In this document: positions 2-21,794 of the stretch, piece after piece
Numbering within the stretch: position 1 is the first letter of the stretch
Layout: each line of letters begins with the position of its first letter
Assembly: GCA_028015205.1 (NCBI GenBank)
Contig: CM051514.1
Coordinates: forward strand, 35,666,150 to 35,730,149
Length of the DNA stretch: 64,000 nt
From: Mytilisepta virgata
Taxonomy: Eukaryota; Mollusca; Bivalvia; Mytilida; Mytilidae
Reading direction: 5' to 3'
Program-made: the position numbers and the translations under genes
Notes under the pieces: generated by a model
The model's database searches: none
What the model was told of the DNA's origin: nothing
The model's input: the letters and a program-made list of their open reading frames with translations, nothing else

Positions 2-1243
2 AATTTCAACCGGACCTACAATAAACCCATTCATCTGTAACCCCCGCCCTGCCGTGTTCATGTGAACCTCCCTATTTTTTGGGGTAACTATGTCCAAGGA
101 TTTATATACTTCCTCAGAAATCAAGGTAACCTCTGCCGCCGTGTCCACTACTGCATACATGCTTTTACCATTTAACTGAAGAGGAACCTGAAGAGCCATC
201 CCATCCCGCACTCGACAAATGGTAACAACACCTTCAACTTCCTCCCCCTCATGGGACTGTTCTGTTAGTGTGACATCGGTTTCAGAATTATCAGAGCCCT
301 CCCCTTGGTCTCCTGTATCTACTCTATCCTTCTGGGGATTTACCTTCCCCAATTCTGTATCTACTTCCTCCTTCTGTCGGTCTACCTCCCCCATTTCACC
401 TGGGTCCACCTTCCGCTCACCCTCTTCCTCTTCAGAGACTCCCTGCCCCTCCGGTTCCCAGGGCGACTCACTGAAAAAACCTTCCCCTATTACCTCTTCT
501 GCCCAGGATCTAGCTACTCTGGGGTCACACTGATCATCTGTACCTTCCCCTGGCCCTGTCTCTTTCCCTGCCTCCCATTCACTCGGGCTAAGAAATTCAT
601 GTGTGCTTAGTTTTTGCACGCTGACTACAAACTTTAATGGTAGCCAACCATCCGAGTTACCTGGGCACAGAACTAATCCATCCTGTGATTGATAGAATTG
701 ATACCCTTCTGTCTGGGCCCTCGCAACATCTATCCCTAGGGCCAATTCCCAATGTGGTTTTAATGTCTTTGGGAAATTCCTATACAGGGGCACATATACT
801 CTTTTCATCCGGTTGATCCCTACTTCCTTTATTGCCTCCCATGCAGAGAATGTTGTAAAGTAGAGACAATATGGAGCATCCCCTGCCTCAATCAATATAG
901 GGTCCTCAAAAGGAAAAGAATGTCCCTGTGTTGCCCTAACCCTGATACTCCCAGAATCCCCCTCTTGTTTATACTGAAAAGCCTGATTTTCATTTTTTAC
1001 AACCCTTAATACATCCTCTGTGTTAAAACCTTGCATCCCAGGGTGTTTTTCTAGCAATTCCCGTACTTCAACATAACTCCCTGGGGCTATCTGCAATCCC
1101 CACTTAACTGCCCCATGTCGAAGAATGTATGCCAGGGTCCTAGATAACAAATTGTCCTTCCCTAGCCTATTTTCTACTGTTTCAAAGCCCTCAACGCTGT
1201 CCTCAACTACGTCCTCGTCCACCCCCTCACCTGTGGGGTACCT
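2..1243 (-). CDS. Retrotransposon polyprotein segment: RNA 2'-phosphotransferase (Tpt1/KptA) domain + acidic linker + retropepsin, partial
   Basis: I translated this frame by hand: it is free of stops from 1243 to the window edge (414 codons) and starts right after an in-frame stop at 1244-1246. Codons at about 1180-620 encode a full-length Tpt1/KptA-type fold: LSRTLAYILRHG with the Arg-His pair at 1115-1120, the VRATQGHS motif (Arg at 935-937), INRMKR (last Arg at 800-802), and GLVLCPGNSDGWLP (about 640-680). These are the landmarks of NAD+-dependent enzymes that remove the 2'-phosphate left on RNA by healing-type ligation; the four positions known as the Arg-His-Arg-Arg tetrad appear kept. 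The usual HGT motif is replaced by YFT (854-862) and the HxH after the last Arg by YVP, so activity is uncertain. An acidic Glu/Pro-rich linker follows (about 620-240), then a retropepsin flap and active site YAVVDTAAEVTLIS (about 110-165). It continues off the left edge. Confidence 0.85.
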
Positions 1244-1304
1244 TCATCCACCAATTTCTCCCTATTGAGACCCTCTCCACTATCTGGGGACCCACTCCGG
1301 CCTC

Positions 1305-1690
1305 TTAAGCGGTCCCTTTCCTGTTTAAATGTAACCCAACTACCTGGTCTGCAAAACTAACAACCTTATCCCTCCCCTGGAGACTCGGGCATTCACGTTT
1401 AAAATGACCTGTTTGCCCACAATGATAGCATTCAGTCCTCCCGGACGAAGGGTTTCTTACCAGGGAATGCCCCCGGGCATTCAGTTTCTTCAGTTCAGTC
1501 AGAAATTCTGACACAACGCCCTCCACCTTATCCAGACGTTTTTCCATCGTGGCCATTTCAATCTTCCCGGAGACTCCCCCACCCTTCTGGGGCAGAATAG
1601 TAGCGCACACTTGTGGTGTGGGCATGCCCTCCCCATATGCACCAACATATTCGACGTGTCGAATCTCCCTTTTTGAGGGCTTCCCATAGA
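1305..1690 (-). CDS. Gag C-terminal segment: coiled coil and CCHC zinc knuckle (nucleocapsid-like)
   Basis: A heptad-rich stretch beginning MEKRLDKVEGVVSEFLTEL (about 1490-1550) is followed by CYHCGQTGHFKREC (about 1395-1440), a canonical C-x2-C-x4-H-x4-C knuckle that binds nucleic acid in retroelement nucleocapsids. The reading frame differs from the capsid segment upstream (ends at 1702) and from the Tpt1-protease segment downstream (starts at 1243); both changes equal skipping one base. The segment ends at a stop at 1305. Start taken by continuity from the capsid, since an independent start is not expected. Either indel damage or programmed shifting would explain the breaks. Confidence 0.8.
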
Positions 1691-1701
1691 TAGCCTGGTG
1701 G

Positions 1702-2787
1702 TTATGCTGATCTTATCCTAATCTTATCCACGGCATCCTCAATACTCTTGGGGCGAACATTAGAGGCCGCACTACCCGCTTCCTTATCAGCCGCCCCCTG
1801 GCACAACCTTAAAACAGCCTGTTGGTACATGTGTTCTTCCGGGAGCTCCCTAAAGGCCCTGGTAGCCAGTGATAACACCCTATCCGCCCAGTCTTCCAAG
1901 GACTCCTCTTGATTTTGGCGGGCATTTTGAAATTGAACTTGTGCAGTTTCCGGGAGTTCCTTAAACCCAAAGCGTTTTTCCAATTTCTGGACTAGTTCTG
2001 AGTACCCTATCTCCCTATTACGTTCAGCTATAAGGGCATAATATTCGCTAGCCTTCCCCTCTAGACACCAGCATAATTGATCTTTGCATTCCCGGGGCCC
2101 CCAACCACACACCTCTGAATATCGGGAAAATTTCGTGAAGAATGCCTGCCAGTTAGTTTTCCCATCATATTTTAAATTTTTCGGGGTAGCGTTGGGTCTT
2201 TGGTTTGGCCCTGGCTCATTTGCGGGTGTTGTTACCTGTCGATTATCTCCCCTCGGCCCATACTTATTTGGCCCTTGTTGTTGATATCCAGGTCCATACC
2301 CCCTACCCCACTTGTCTCTTTGGTCTCTTGGGCCCCTGTTTTCCCATTGTGTGGTATTGAAAGGGCGATAAACCGAGTCGTCCACTTGCCCCCTGAACGT
2401 CTGGGGTGGGCATTCCATGGGCCTCATCCCCCTCCCCGGACCCTGTGTCAGAGGATAGCTCTGCTGCCACTTACTAAACCTACTCCTGGGTGTTTCTGTT
2501 ATCCCTCTTATTGGCCCTACCGAAGATTCAATTCTAAGGCCCTGCCCCTGAGCTGCACTCCTATTGCCCTGCGTGTATTCCATGGGTGTTCCCTGGGGTG
2601 CCCCCACTGGCCCCCCATTACTTGGGTGTGGTGTACTATATCCCTTCAATTTATCCGCCCGATCCCTGGCCAAACTATCTTGTCCTAACCCCAGTGGCAT
2701 ATGTTTGTCCCTGTCCCACTGGGCCTGTGTGCTGTAGGGCAACTTTCCGGCCCCCCTGTAGACCTTGGCCTCCCACTTTTGATCATA
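1702..2787 (-). CDS. Gag middle segment: disordered linker and capsid-like domain
   Basis: This is in the same frame as the N-terminal Gag segment and separated from it by a single TAA at 2788-2790. The first half is Gln/Gly/Pro/Arg-rich and looks disordered. From about 2190 to 1720 it reads NLKYDGKTNWQAFFTKFSRY, then paired helices with LEKRFG, ESLEDWADRVLSLATRAF and related blocks; that is the usual layout of the retrotransposon Gag (capsid) domain, which multimerises into the particle. A stop follows at 1702-1704, after which the zinc-knuckle part is in another frame. No catalytic residues are expected. Confidence 0.8.
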   Translation of the reverse strand, partial: YDQKWEAKVYRGAGKLPYSTQAQWDRDKHMPLGLGQDSLARDRADKLKGYSTPHPSNGGPVGAPQGTPMEYTQGNRSAAQGQGLRIESSVGPIRGITETPRSRFSKWQQSYPLTQGPGRGMRPMECPPQTFRGQVDDSVYRPFNTTQWENRGPRDQRDKWGRGYGPGYQQQGPNKYGPRGDNRQVTTPANEPGPNQRPNATPKNLKYDGKTNWQAFFTKFSRYSEVCGWGPRECKDQLCWCLEGKASEYYALIAERNREIGYSELVQKLEKRFGFKELPETAQVQFQNARQNQEESLEDWADRVLSLATRAFRELPEEHMYQQAVLRLCQGAADKEAGSAASNVRPKSIEDAVDKIRIRSA

Positions 2788-3420
2788 TTAATTTTTACAA
2801 TCCATCTCCCCGTGTTCCGTATTGCTGGAATTATCATATGGGTTGTTTTGATATCTACTAGCCCTTTGCTGTGGAGGGTCCCCAAACTGATATTTCCGGT
2901 CACCTGTGTACATACTACTCTGACCCCACCCTGACTGATCGACATACGGGGTGTGGTTATCAGTGTATGGTCCCCCCGAATCACTGTTAAGCTCATATTC
3001 AATGAAAGCTGAATCCATATCTCCTCCCCCCATGTATTGGTGGTATGGGGTTTGTGGCCCTTGAGATTCCTGTTTAACTGGGTATGGAGCCTTGTCCCGT
3101 TGATAATCTCCTGTCCCCTGCCTGGTCAGGCCTCCCTGGGCTCCCATGCTAGGAAATCCCAGCCCCTGGTCCCAATATGGATGGTCTACCGGCTGTCCCT
3201 GTCCACCCATAACCCTTGGGTTCCCTTCCCCCTGAGAGAAGTCCAGCCTGCTCAAAAGATCCGGTGTTATTCTAAGATGGGGGACCCTGGCTAAATCCTC
3301 TTCCCTTAATGATCCCTCCACCTCCCTTATGGCCATGATCTGCTCTGCAATTTTCGGACCAATACCTGGGAGCTGTAATAAATCCTCATAGGAGCAGGTG
3401 TTAATAAAAATATTAGACAT
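2788..3420 (-). CDS. Gag N-terminal segment with helix-hairpin-helix
   Basis: Starts at the ATG at 3420-3418 (the open frame extends upstream only through a non-ATG codon) and runs 210 codons to TAA. Residues about 8-60 read SYEDLLQLPGIGPKIAEQIM and then a second helical pair ending in LARVPHLRI; LPGIGPKIAEQI is a clear helix-hairpin-helix signature of the ComEA/DNA-repair type, which contacts DNA or RNA backbone without sequence specificity. The remainder is Gln/Gly/Tyr-rich low complexity. A helix-hairpin-helix at the very N-terminus of a Gag is unusual to me. The in-frame stop at the end separates it from the capsid segment; whether it is a mutation or read-through is unknown. Confidence 0.75.
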   Translation of the reverse strand: MSNIFINTCSYEDLLQLPGIGPKIAEQIMAIREVEGSLREEDLARVPHLRITPDLLSRLDFSQGEGNPRVMGGQGQPVDHPYWDQGLGFPSMGAQGGLTRQGTGDYQRDKAPYPVKQESQGPQTPYHQYMGGGDMDSAFIEYELNSDSGGPYTDNHTPYVDQSGWGQSSMYTGDRKYQFGDPPQQRASRYQNNPYDNSSNTEHGEMDCKN

Positions 3421-4163: not shown

Positions 4164-4177
4164 TGCTCGCAGCGCCA
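4164..4177 (-). promoter_or_regulatory. Primer-binding site, tRNA-Ser-like
   Basis: On the minus strand this reads TGGCGCTGCGAGCA, i.e. the complement of a tRNA 3' end TGCTCGCAGCGCCA. The 7-bp acceptor strand plus G discriminator matches the GCTGCGA-type acceptor stem of eukaryotic tRNA-Ser as I remember it; the isoacceptor is an inference. It lies two bases downstream, in element sense, of an LTR end ACAACA at 4180-4185, which is the expected PBS spacing for an LTR retrotransposon. Confidence 0.75.
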
Positions 4178-4179
4178 GA

Positions 4180-4550
4180 TGTTGTAAGGTCAACTAATTA
4201 ATTTACTTTAGGTTTCTGGTCTCTAATCTTCTACAGGGGTAGGATTAAAGTAGATCTGTGTCTTCTAATATTCTGTGTGTGTTCTGTTCAATGGATGCAA
4301 GCGAGAGAGAGATGCATTGTGGGACGGCTAACGTTTTCCGTTTGGGTCTCACTAACTACCCAAAATCTACTACAATATGTACATATCGTAAATTTCTTGC
4401 TTTTAGCGCTCACGTGAGATTATAATAGTGCTTTGTTTTTAAATATTAACTGCATTAAAGTAAACTATATCCTGCTCAAAATCCCACTGTCGCTCGTCTG
4501 GCTAACGCTTTAAAAAGACTAAACTCTTCCACTACGCAGGGTGGTTAAGG
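4180..4550 (-). repeat. LTR (inner edge defined, outer edge approximate)
   Basis: The inner edge is set by the PBS: the LTR ends ...TTACAACA at 4180 in element sense (TGTTGTAA on the plus strand). No gene is seen in this span. The outer edge could not be placed because no second LTR copy lies in the window and the palindromic array begins at 4558. Confidence 0.5.
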
Positions 4551-4557
4551 CAATGCT

Positions 4558-5022
4558 ATGGCACGCCGTATTTATATTTATTCAACGTTCAAGATATCTC
4601 ATATACTTTATAAGATATCTCATAAACTTTATAAGATATCTTATAAAGTTTATAAGATATCTTATAAAGTTTATAAGATATCTTATATAATTTATAAGAT
4701 ATCTTATATATTTTATGAGATATCTTATAAAGAAAAGTTTATAAGATATCTCATAAACTTTATAAGATATCTTATAAACTTTATAAGATATCTTATAAAG
4801 TTTATAAGATATCTTATAAAGTTTATGAGATATCTTATAAACTTTTCTTTATAAGATATCTCATAAAATATATAAGATATCTTATAAATTATATAAGATA
4901 TCTTATAAACTTTATAAGATATCTTATAAACTTTATAAGATATCTTATAAAGTTTATGAGATATCTTATAAAGTATATGAGATATCTTATAAAGTTGAAT
5001 AAATATAAATACGGCGTGCCAT
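4558..5022. repeat. 465-bp near-perfect palindrome built of TATAAGATATCTTATA units
   Basis: The ends are 29-bp terminal inverted repeats: ATGGCACGCCGTATTTATAT... at 4558 and its reverse complement ending at 5022. The whole interval reads the same on both strands, with the dyad centre near 4789. Internally it is a tandem array of roughly 20-22 bp units centred on GATATC, each itself a palindrome, so self-complementarity exists at unit and element scale. The period is in frame, so translation gives YKISYKLYKIS-type peptides; these are not genes. Likely a foldback-type or hairpin MITE element. Confidence 0.85.
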
Positions 5023-5471
5023 ATCTTTTTATAAGATATCTTATATAATTTATAAGATATCTCATAAACTTTATAAGATATCTTATATAATATATAAGAT
5101 ATCTTATAAAGTTTATGAGATATCTTATAAATTATATAAGATATCTTATAAAAAGAATTATATTAGATATCTCCTAAATTATATAAGATATCTTATAAAC
5201 TATATAAGATATCTTATAAACTATATAAGATATCTTATATAACGTTTGTTTATAAGATATCTTATAAACTATATAAGATATCTTATAAACTTTATAAGAT
5301 ATCTTATATAATTTATAAGATATCTTATAAAGTTTATAAGATATCTTATATAATTTATAAGATATCTTATAAAAACCCAATTATATAAGATATCTTATAA
5401 ATTATATAAGATATCTTATAAATTATATAAGATATCTTCAAAACGGAATAAATATAAATACGGCGTGCCAT
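5023..5471. repeat. Second palindromic-unit block ending in the same 26-bp terminal repeat
   Basis: Continues the GATATC-centred unit array directly after the first palindrome and ends with the same ...ATAAATACGGCGTGCCAT terminus (5446-5471). Immediately outside, TATGGCAC recurs in inverted orientation (5475-5482), resembling the start of another, decayed left terminus. The left terminus of this block is missing, suggesting a composite or partly deleted element. Confidence 0.75.
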
Positions 5472-21227: not shown

Positions 21228-21782
21228 GATGCTTATTTCGTGAAGAACCACTCCGATTCTGACAAAAAGTATTATGAAGATGAAATTACAGACATGTTAG
21301 ATTTTCTCATATACAACATATTTGTTGAATTTGGCGGTCAAATTTTTCAACAAACAATCGGCATTCCAATGGGAACCAACTGTGCTCCTCTCCTCGCCGA
21401 TCTGTTTCTGCACTCATATGAGGCGGACTTCATTCAAGGGCTACTACGTGAAAACAAAAAGAAACTAGCCCAATCCTTTAATTTCACTTTTCGTTATATA
21501 GATGACGTGTTGTCGTTAAATAACGACAAATTCCAAGACTTTCTACATCTCATCTACCCCAGTGAGCTTGAAATGAAGGATGCTACAGATACACCAAAGT
21601 CCGCTTCATATTTGGATTTGTTTCTTGAAATAGACAATGAGGGACATTTGAAGACAAAATTTTATGACAAATGTGATGACTTCAACTGTCCTATTGTTAA
21701 CTTCCCCTTCTTGAGTAGCAATATACAAGCATCGCCTGCATATGAGGTCTACGTTTCTCAGCTTATCCGATTTTCAAATTAC
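21228..21782 (+). pseudogene. Penelope-like element reverse transcriptase fragment
   Basis: The frame is open upstream of the first listed start codon. It contains IFQQTIGIPMGTNCAPLLAD and FRYIDDVLSLNN (catalytic Asp pair of the RT), followed by SASYLDL and SPAYEVYVSQLIRF. These are RT core motifs characteristic of Penelope-like elements. Upstream fingers and the downstream thumb and GIY-YIG endonuclease are missing; similarity ends near 21775. An isolated fragment, not functional. Confidence 0.85.
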
Positions 21783-21794
21783 AGGTACAGGTGA

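What the first reader, a model, noticed from the sequence alone, without database searches (positions are those of the whole stretch)
620..1190. tRNA 2'-phosphotransferase (Tpt1/KptA) domain inside a retrotransposon polyprotein
A complete Tpt1/KptA-like domain lies between the CCHC knuckle and the retropepsin in one uninterrupted frame. The signature motifs are visible: ILRHG, VRATQGHS, INRMKR and CPGNSDGWLP. Host Tpt1 removes the 2'-phosphate left by RNA ligation, and some family members ADP-ribosylate RNA ends. A retroelement carrying it could act on its tRNA primer, repair its genome RNA, or mask RNA ends. I do not know of a described Gag-Tpt1-protease element.
Basis: partly seen in the sequence, partly recalled or inferred. 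Interest (0 to 1): 0.93.

Follow-up and report, generated by a model that had tools for sequence, protein, structure and literature searches.

The report
RNA-repair enzyme inside bivalve retrotransposons
A family of LTR retrotransposons, probably of bivalves, carries a copy of the cell's RNA 2'-phosphate-removing enzyme (Tpt1) at the front of its Pol protein and has kept it under natural selection, which suggests that the element processes the ends or damage of RNA inside its own particles.

Summary
The Tpt1/KptA domain is real: PF01885, E = 1.1e-28, window 1156-659, minus strand. It is no chance insertion. This genome holds at least 25 loci with this element's Tpt1, two of them lone pieces, and Mytilus has relatives with the same Tpt1-protease order. 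Tpt1 and protease trees each fit one capture. Tpt1 is under purifying selection (dN/dS 0.18-0.21 between forms).

Two corrections. CCHC and Tpt1 are not in one frame: Tpt1 heads the Pol frame, -1 to Gag past an in-frame T TTA AAC; 11 of 21 loci show the full arrangement, the rest are broken. The window copy is damaged and belongs to a ~6 kb form without RT or integrase; an 11.3 kb form has Tpt1-PR-RT-RH-IN-PHD plus a TatD ORF. The short form keeps Tpt1 under selection.

Most likely Tpt1 is packaged with Gag-Pol and removes 2'-phosphates, or ADP-ribosylates ends (inferred). Open-access searches found no Tpt1 in a retroelement; KptA in two RNA-virus polyproteins is known (PMC9503650).

The parts
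4180..4374 (-). 5' LTR, 195 bp, TGTAG...ACAACA
   Evidence: LTR search and pairing; its partner lies outside the window at contig C7:35664395-35664590, 2 mismatches in 195
4164..4177 (-). primer-binding site TGGCGCTGCGAGCA, complementary to 14 nt at the 3' end of tRNA-Ser (CCA included)
2791..3420 (-). Gag N-terminal part with helix-hairpin-helix (HhH at about 3408-3274)
   Evidence: PF12836 5.9e-9, PF00633 5.1e-8
2788..2790 (-). in-frame stop within Gag: damage of this copy
1705..2787 (-). Gag/capsid part (PNMA/Retrotrans_gag match at about 2100-1822); frame lost at its 3' end near 1712-1705
   Evidence: PF14893 5.8e-7; PF03732 2e-4, 21.9 bits, just under its cut-off of 24.1
1308..1712 (-). 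Gag end with CCHC zinc knuckle (about 1430-1383), ending in a stop
   Evidence: PF00098 1.4e-7
1323..1329 (-). slippery heptamer T TTA AAC, in frame with the CCHC piece
   Evidence: in frame with CCHC in 19 of 21 loci holding both; 11 of 21 also have Tpt1 in the -1 frame after it without a large insertion; RNA structure after it not exceptional
1210..1356 (-). start of the Pol frame (FKQERDRLRGRSGS...), cut from the Tpt1 frame by a shift at a short homopolymer run; five other copies (L010, L017, L020, L022, L025) are shifted at the same run
659..1156 (-). Tpt1/KptA domain, tetrad Arg-His-Arg-Arg kept, two codons shorter than most sister copies
   Evidence: PF01885 1.1e-28; PDB; fold; tetrad; length
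190..658 (-). acidic spacer between Tpt1 and protease
2..187 (-). start of the retropepsin-like protease (VVDTAAEVT); it continues beyond the window into L031
   Evidence: PF13975 6.2e-6 (27.2 bits, cut-off 28.2) and PF13650 5.7e-5 (24.2, cut-off 24.3), cut by the window edge; continuation

Best explanation
A Ty3/gypsy-order LTR retrotransposon lineage captured a eukaryotic TRPT1/Tpt1 coding sequence once and kept it as the first enzymatic domain of Pol, directly before the protease. Shown by sequence: the domain, its position, its spread over many copies and several species, one clade for Tpt1 and one for its protease, purifying selection, and its retention by a short derivative that lost RT, RNase H, integrase and PHD. 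Inferred: ribosomes slip -1 at T TTA AAC after the CCHC knuckle, so Tpt1 is made at Gag-Pol level and enters the particle. There, using NAD+, it most likely clears 2'-phosphates (left by RNA cleavage or repair, which I expect to obstruct copying) from the packaged RNA, and may ADP-ribosylate 5'-phosphorylated RNA or DNA ends. My weights: anatomy and capture about 0.95, frameshift about 0.8 (lowered from 0.85 after the recount), enzymatic activity about 0.7, 2'-phosphate removal as the main task about 0.45.
For: Domain and fold: (Foldseek best 7yw3, human, E 1.3e-15). Family: 30 PF01885 matches in the window's genome (a lower bound, as the tool says), which I count as 27 loci, 25 with the element's Tpt1; 17 of 17 LTR pairs enclose Tpt1, 10 of 11 with readable flanks show a 4-bp target duplication, 9 of 17 have LTRs without a mismatch, so the family moved recently. 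Other species: Tpt1 joined to a whole protease in Mytilus coruscus, M. galloprovincialis and one environmental protein, and Tpt1 with little or no protease in M. edulis gene models. One clade: Tpt1 100/98, protease 98/92. Selection: Tpt1 dN/dS 0.18-0.21 in five chosen long-versus-short pairs (simple binomial P 3.9e-7 to 2.9e-6; the two long copies used have the same Tpt1, so the pairs are not independent) and 0.20-0.27 in four pairs within the short form, against 0.54-0.70, not distinguishable from neutral, in the linker just before it (identity of the long copies). Tetrad Arg-His-Arg-Arg kept in 17 of 22 copies; PMC6333775 and PMC6582358 (passages read) report it essential. Short form without RT/IN. 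Long/short recombinant Gag in L009, consistent with co-packaging.
Against: No activity was measured. The NAD+ lobe differs from the host enzymes: KPHW stands for the host GMR in 20 of 22 copies of this genome and in 6 of the 9 distinct relatives checked (the other 3 are partial there), and HGT becomes YFT in this genome (FFT in L020), HYT or HCT in Mytilus and YCS in P0001; the matching residues of the Runella enzyme matter in PMC6333775 section 14. In 6 of 7 Mytilus rows the third tetrad place is Lys, and P0001 lacks the His and the last Arg, so some lineages may be altered or dead. No ligase or 2H phosphoesterase appeared in the pieces scanned, so the source of a 2'-phosphate is unknown. The spacer after Tpt1 is also constrained (0.32-0.41), so low dN/dS is not confined to the domains. 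The structure model is middling (pLDDT 79.9, pTM 0.57). The frameshift rests on frame, heptamer and repetition; 10 of 21 loci break the arrangement at some step, and folding after the site is ordinary (z 0.23; z 0.35 and -0.83).
Confidence: 0.6

Rival explanations
1. Tpt1 serves as an RNA/DNA-end ADP-ribosyltransferase: it caps 5'-phosphorylated ends of element RNA or nascent DNA with ADP-ribose, to protect them or hide them from host sensors; 2'-phosphate removal is secondary.
For: Human TRPT1 ADP-ribosylates 5'-phosphorylated ssRNA and ssDNA through the same tetrad (PMC6582358, passages). A solved KptA complex with 5'-p-ADPR-DNA is listed. Alanine at the third tetrad Arg of RslTpt1 slows step 2 about 210-fold but step 1 only threefold (PMC6333775, passages); 6 of 7 Mytilus rows have Lys there.
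Against: The copies of this genome keep Arg at that place (22 of 22), which is what full phosphate removal needs. Lys also occurs in one of the fungal host proteins in the set and in one host-like exon, so it need not mean a new activity.
Confidence: 0.25
2. Counter-defence: host RNases that leave 2',3'-cyclic or 2'-phosphate ends attack element RNA or tRNAs, and Tpt1 helps to mend them together with host ligases.
For: Such a role is proposed for viral KptA domains in PMC9503650 (passages).
Against: No ligase or 2H domain was found in the element pieces scanned; a repaired RNA would need other factors.
Confidence: 0.15
3. It acts on the primer tRNA, cleaning or modifying its end before reverse transcription.
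For: The domain would be in the particle with the primer; 14-nt fit of the primer-binding site to tRNA-Ser.
Against: The one matching tRNA gene that ARAGORN recognised has no intron, so no splice-junction 2'-phosphate is expected there; 5 of the 7 genomic matches were not looked at.
Confidence: 0.05
4. The domain is catalytically altered and kept as an RNA-binding or structural part of the particle.
For: NAD+-lobe changes common to the element versions; the short form, which lacks RT and IN, keeps the domain under selection, so its role may lie in the particle.
Against: The tetrad is kept in 17 of 22 copies, and each of the five exceptions is a different single-copy change.
Confidence: 0.12
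5. Chance insertion or passenger: a neutral host TPT1 fragment carried along.
For: Two loci (L013, L014) hold a Tpt1 piece alone, so such pieces can be copied.
Against: One clade with long-shared history, many copies, purifying selection.
Confidence: 0.02

Closest known systems
KptA domains embedded in polyproteins of Beihai picorna-like virus 117 and Botrylloides leachii nidovirus (PMC9503650, passages read)
   Same: KptA/Tpt1 domain inside the polyprotein of an RNA-based agent of marine animals
   Different: Those are positive-strand RNA viruses; the passages I saw name no retroelement. Here it lies in an LTR element between nucleocapsid and protease. I did not fetch those virus sequences, so common origin is untested.
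Betaretroviral dUTPase placed N-terminal of Pro (PMC1224870, passages read)
   Same: A captured enzyme placed just before the protease, in a group where -1 Gag-Pro shifts are common
   Different: dUTPase keeps uracil out of DNA; Tpt1 acts on phosphates of RNA (or DNA) ends with NAD+
Cellular TRPT1/Tpt1/KptA (PF01885; 7yw3, 7yw2)
   Same: Same fold; tetrad Arg-His-Arg-Arg in 17 of 22 copies of this genome
   Different: Part of a polyprotein; altered NAD+-lobe motifs; separate branch
Related elements without Tpt1 before the protease: P0061 and P0064 (Mytilus edulis), P0017, P0031 and P0034 (unnamed ENA contigs)
   Same: Related protease; in P0061 and P0064 also an HhH start as in this Gag
   Different: Acidic or other sequence in place of Tpt1 before the protease
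Non-autonomous LTR derivatives that keep Gag (recalled class, e.g. TR-GAG type; from no call)
   Same: Short form with LTRs and Gag but no RT or IN
   Different: Keeps Tpt1 and protease under selection and has the first part of ORF3 fused in frame to the protease

Membership tests
RNA 2'-phosphotransferase Tpt1/KptA (PF01885) | Profile match over the whole domain above the curated cut-off | tested here: met
   100.9 bits against 26, positions 3-177 of 177
RNA 2'-phosphotransferase Tpt1/KptA (PF01885) | Arg-His-Arg-Arg tetrad | tested here: met
   Met in the window copy and in 17 of 22 copies of this genome. Not met strictly in the relatives: 6 of 7 Mytilus rows have Lys at the third place, P0001 lacks two of the four
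RNA 2'-phosphotransferase Tpt1/KptA (PF01885) | NAD+-lobe residues (His-Gly-Thr; Arg of the phosphate cage) | tested here: inconclusive
   YFT instead of HGT (Thr kept), KPHW instead of GMR (Lys for Arg) by alignment (roles from PMC6333775 sections 8 and 14)
RNA 2'-phosphotransferase Tpt1/KptA (PF01885) | Fold of a Tpt1 | tested here: met
   pLDDT 79.9, pTM 0.57; the 21 PDB matches with E <= 0.001 are all Tpt1/KptA entries, best E 1.3e-15
RNA 2'-phosphotransferase Tpt1/KptA (PF01885) | NAD+-dependent removal of a 2'-phosphate | not testable with these tools
   Needs an enzyme assay
LTR retrotransposon | LTRs TG...CA, primer-binding site, short target duplication | tested here: met
   195-bp LTR, PBS to tRNA-Ser, 4-bp duplications in 10 of 11 readable copies; the window copy is the one without matching flanks
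Ty3/gypsy-type element, long form | Order PR-RT-RH-IN | tested here: met
   PR ahead of RT in the long copies, then RT, RNase H and IN domains
Ty3/gypsy-type element, window copy itself | Own RT and IN | tested here: not met
   No RT or IN in the window copy or its downstream stretch L031, 3' LTR reached about 1.6 kb past the window edge: a non-autonomous derivative
Ty3/gypsy-type element, long form | RT tree within Ty3/gypsy | not tested
   No RT tree built; the RT protein search of the genome did not complete (and later repeats)
Programmed -1 frameshift site | X XXY YYZ heptamer in the overlap, in frame, with the next frame -1 | tested here: met
   T TTA AAC in frame with CCHC in 19 of 21 loci; Tpt1 in its -1 frame in 13 of 21; both, without a large insertion, in 11 of 21. 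The window copy meets the first and not the second
Programmed -1 frameshift site | Stimulating RNA structure downstream | tested here: inconclusive
   A hairpin is possible (-13.2 kcal/mol) but 42 of 200 shuffles fold as well

The most novel reading that the evidence does not exclude
An LTR retroelement that uses NAD+-dependent chemistry on its own nucleic acid: Tpt1, delivered in the particle through Gag-Pol, removes RT-blocking 2'-phosphates or ADP-ribose-caps ends. The role is so tied to the particle that a derivative without RT and integrase, moved by the long form, still keeps Gag-Tpt1-protease under selection.
Probability: 0.35. Interest if true: 0.9.

Novelty: new variant of a known kind. 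Interest (0 to 1): 0.78.

Why it matters
What animal TRPT1 is for is an open question: PMC6582358 (passages) calls its role in species that do not need it for tRNA splicing elusive. A mobile element that has kept the enzyme inside its replication polyprotein offers a natural setting with a defined candidate substrate, its own packaged nucleic acid. It would also be, as far as my searches show (open-access text only), the first Tpt1 in a reverse-transcribing element, in the slot where betaretroviruses carry dUTPase. The short form that keeps Tpt1 but drops RT and IN separates particle functions from copying functions and makes the question testable.

Tried and rejected
Chance insertion: rejected. 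'One frame from CCHC': rejected. Primer-tRNA splicing role: disfavoured (ARAGORN called a tRNA in one of the two stretches looked at, and the other shows only a 3' fragment). A second programmed shift before Tpt1: I first took the window's second shift as private to it; the recount shows five more copies shifted at the same homopolymer run and two (L018, L019) elsewhere. I read it as a mutation or assembly-error hot spot, because 13 of 21 loci do not need it, but a regulated slip there is not excluded. A stimulating RNA structure: not supported. A first protease tree had two mislabelled rows: P0004, which holds half a Tpt1, and P0005, with a shifted protease and a very long branch. I relabelled P0004, dropped P0005 and reran (9 Tpt1-bearing rows, 26 with upstream sequence and no Tpt1, 35 of unknown state); P0012 and P0048, whose upstream part is not held, also fall with the Tpt1 side. 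Tpt1 tree: 14 element rows and 30 host rows, the host rows being 28 proteins that I chose from the lists (120 of 998 hits shown; four are unnamed environmental ones) and two exon pieces of under 60 residues; root at the midpoint. The two host-like exons (L024, L026) are too short to name the donor. Rows left out of selection counts: copies with shifted, stopped or split Tpt1 (L019-L023, L025) were not (L017 was, its stop codon skipped), and one search used chosen pairs among copies with a long open Pol frame. Over all long-short pairs the mean gave 0.24. IMG/VR scan: 8 loci, 25-28% identical, not followed. Whether related RT-bearing elements of this genome lack Tpt1 could not be counted: the search did not complete. 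Papers holding both Tpt1 and transposon words were opened for the word: PMC4053983 and PMC3549820 name the Pfam family in tables of genes, PMC4769843 matches a DOI and PMC9498494 another protein in a reference; none is about this. The other papers listed hold neither Tpt1 nor KptA; of 17,670 matches 25 were listed.

Full report
What is there. On the minus strand at the low end of the window lies a damaged LTR element that runs off the window edge. The piece 1243-2 is one open frame with PF01885 (Tpt1/KptA) at residues 30-195, E = 1.1e-28, followed by an acidic spacer and the start of an aspartic protease. The nearest solved proteins are human and mouse TRPT1 at about 1e-22; the best archaeal one reaches 1.2e-7. 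Upstream are a Gag with an N-terminal helix-hairpin-helix (PF12836 5.9e-9), a PNMA match (5.8e-7) and a CCHC knuckle. This copy is broken: a stop in Gag at 2788-2790, a lost frame near 1712-1705, and a further shift between the Pol start and Tpt1.

The family. The window's genome (1.03 Gb, no name given) has 30 PF01885 matches, a lower bound. I count 27 loci: 25 with the element's Tpt1, the window copy included, and 2 short, exon-like host pieces. Two of the 25 (L013, L014) are Tpt1 pieces without CCHC or protease motif nearby. An LTR search listed 40 hits (40 of 92 candidates scored), which form 17 pairs. All 17 enclose a Tpt1 match (coordinates). Of the 11 pairs with both flanks readable, 10 show a 4-bp target duplication and the window copy does not. 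Nine of 17 LTR pairs have no mismatch, some with unread ends. The window element is 6.1 kb from LTR to LTR.

Two forms. Thirteen of 17 pairs span 5.0-6.2 kb, two 11.3 kb, one 9.9 kb, and one 33 kb (it looks nested). The long form was read in two copies: Gag, then Tpt1-PR, RT, RNase H, integrase and a PHD finger, and then a third frame with a TatD nuclease (PF01026, 5.7e-37). In the short form the protease runs in frame into the first part of that third frame; RT to PHD and TatD are gone. A tblastn of the long form's RT and integrase pieces against 26 sequences hit only the long copy L027 and the two-knuckle copies L017 and L023. It hit no short copy and none of the five downstream stretches of short copies (L029, L031, L032, L036, L038); the held pieces of the long or two-knuckle copies L001, L003 and L018 are probably too short to reach RT. 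In the short copy L009 the first thousand or so bases of Gag held are 99.5-100% identical to a long copy and then fall to 90% and 85%, a recombinant as expected if both RNAs share particles (inference).

Frames. In most copies Gag ends ...VVGLHLN(R/K/G)KGTA and the Pol frame, -1 to it, holds ...VTFK(Q/R)ERDRL.... T TTA AAC lies in frame with CCHC in 19 of the 21 loci that hold both; L015 and L021 differ, and L016 and L023 lack it. From the heptamer to Tpt1 the frame is -1 in 13 of 21 (L021 across a large insertion) and other in 8: L010, L017, L020, L022, L025 and the window copy at one homopolymer run, L018 and L019 elsewhere. Both conditions, without the insertion, hold in 11 of 21. Folding after the site is not clearly better than shuffles. 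So Tpt1 is the first domain of Pol and would be made at Gag-Pol level (inference).

Selection and history. Between long and short copies Tpt1 has dN/dS 0.18-0.21 in five chosen pairs; protease 0.12-0.23; spacer 0.32-0.41; the linker before Tpt1 0.54-0.70, not distinguishable from neutral. Within the short form Tpt1 has 0.20-0.27 in four pairs, protease 0.30-0.33, spacer 0.34-0.40. Averaged over all long-short pairs Tpt1 has 0.24. Database relatives include Tpt1-protease proteins of Mytilus coruscus and galloprovincialis, one environmental protein P0001 with Tpt1-PR and the start of RT, and a Mytilus edulis gene model with an HhH Gag start and Tpt1. In a tree of 44 rows the 14 element Tpt1s are one side of a branch, 100/98. 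In a protease tree of 70 rows the Tpt1-bearing rows, with two of unknown state, are one side of a branch, 98/92. In the Tpt1 tree and the first protease tree the copies of this genome fall next to the P0003/P0010 type, so the two domains share a history.

Is it an enzyme? Arg-His-Arg-Arg is kept in 17 of 22 copies. Against that, the element versions differ in the NAD+ lobe (KPHW for GMR in 20 of 22 copies; YFT for HGT), 6 of 7 Mytilus rows have Lys at the third tetrad place, and P0001 has lost two tetrad residues. PMC6333775 (passages, sections 8 and 14) shows why these matter: in the Runella enzyme alanine at both HGT side chains is lethal in yeast, and at the cage Arg nearly so. Here Thr is kept and Lys replaces Arg, so activity is likely but not certain.

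How it may work. Human TRPT1 ADP-ribosylates 5'-phosphorylated RNA and ssDNA through the tetrad that the family uses to remove 2'-phosphates (PMC6582358, passages). In the particle the domain could clear 2'-phosphates from the template or mark ends. A primer-tRNA role is weak: the primer-binding site fits 14 nt of tRNA-Ser, and the one matching gene that ARAGORN recognised has no intron.

What is known. PMC9503650 (passages) reports KptA in polyproteins of two positive-strand RNA viruses and in few other eukaryotic viruses; the passages shown name no retroelement, and words beginning retrotranspos, retroelement and Metaviridae do not occur in its text. PMC1224870 (passages) describes dUTPase N-terminal of Pro in betaretroviruses, the same slot. 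Searches for Tpt1, KptA or PTS_2-RNA with retrotransposon, retroelement or transposon terms gave no report of this fusion (open-access papers only; the four with both kinds of words were opened and are unrelated). That the source is a bivalve is inferred from the named relatives (Mytilus, Mercenaria, Dreissena); no call names it.

Noticed in passing
genome-wide; L034:3233-5458: 147 TatD-nuclease (PF01026) matches in this animal genome, many in open frames of 300-900 aa; long-form Tpt1 elements carry one in their third frame, and the relatives P0065 (Mytilus edulis) and P0080 (unnamed) join it to a related protease. TatD looks like a widespread accessory of this retroelement group. One paper search (TatD, retrotransposon, gypsy) listed a single wheat-genome paper, not opened.
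   Followed up: partly
L013, L014 (contig C14 near 33.93 and 34.03 Mb): A ~990-bp Tpt1-plus-acidic-tail piece stands alone, without CCHC or protease motif within 2 kb, twice 95 kb apart, tetrad intact, frames of 261 and 370 aa open: a fragment or a possible domesticated copy.
   Followed up: partly
L009: Short-form copy whose Gag start matches a long-form copy almost exactly, then diverges: long/short recombinant.
   Followed up: partly
window about 1240; L010, L017, L020, L022, L025: A homopolymer run in the linker before Tpt1 is shifted in six copies of different lineages: a mutation hot spot, an assembly error, or something regulated.
   Followed up: partly
L027:2038-5229 (minus): A PHD finger follows the integrase in the long form (PF00628 1.1e-10); PHD also occurs in the Mytilus edulis proteins P0061 and P0064.
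   Followed up: no
window 3408-3274: Gag begins with a helix-hairpin-helix domain, also in Mytilus relatives P0011, P0061, P0064 and P0082; an odd start for a Gag.
   Followed up: no
window 4555-5470: Array of ATAAGATATCTTATAAA-type palindromes with copies, in both orientations, of GGCACGCCGTATTTATATTTATTC around and within it (read by eye).
   Followed up: no
window 21240-21794: Open frame with reverse-transcriptase-like motifs (IPMGTNCAPLLADLFL...RYIDDV); no family search made.
   Followed up: no
P0026: A Mytilus coruscus gene model with two Tpt1 domains of different type in tandem; may be two element copies merged by the gene prediction.
   Followed up: no
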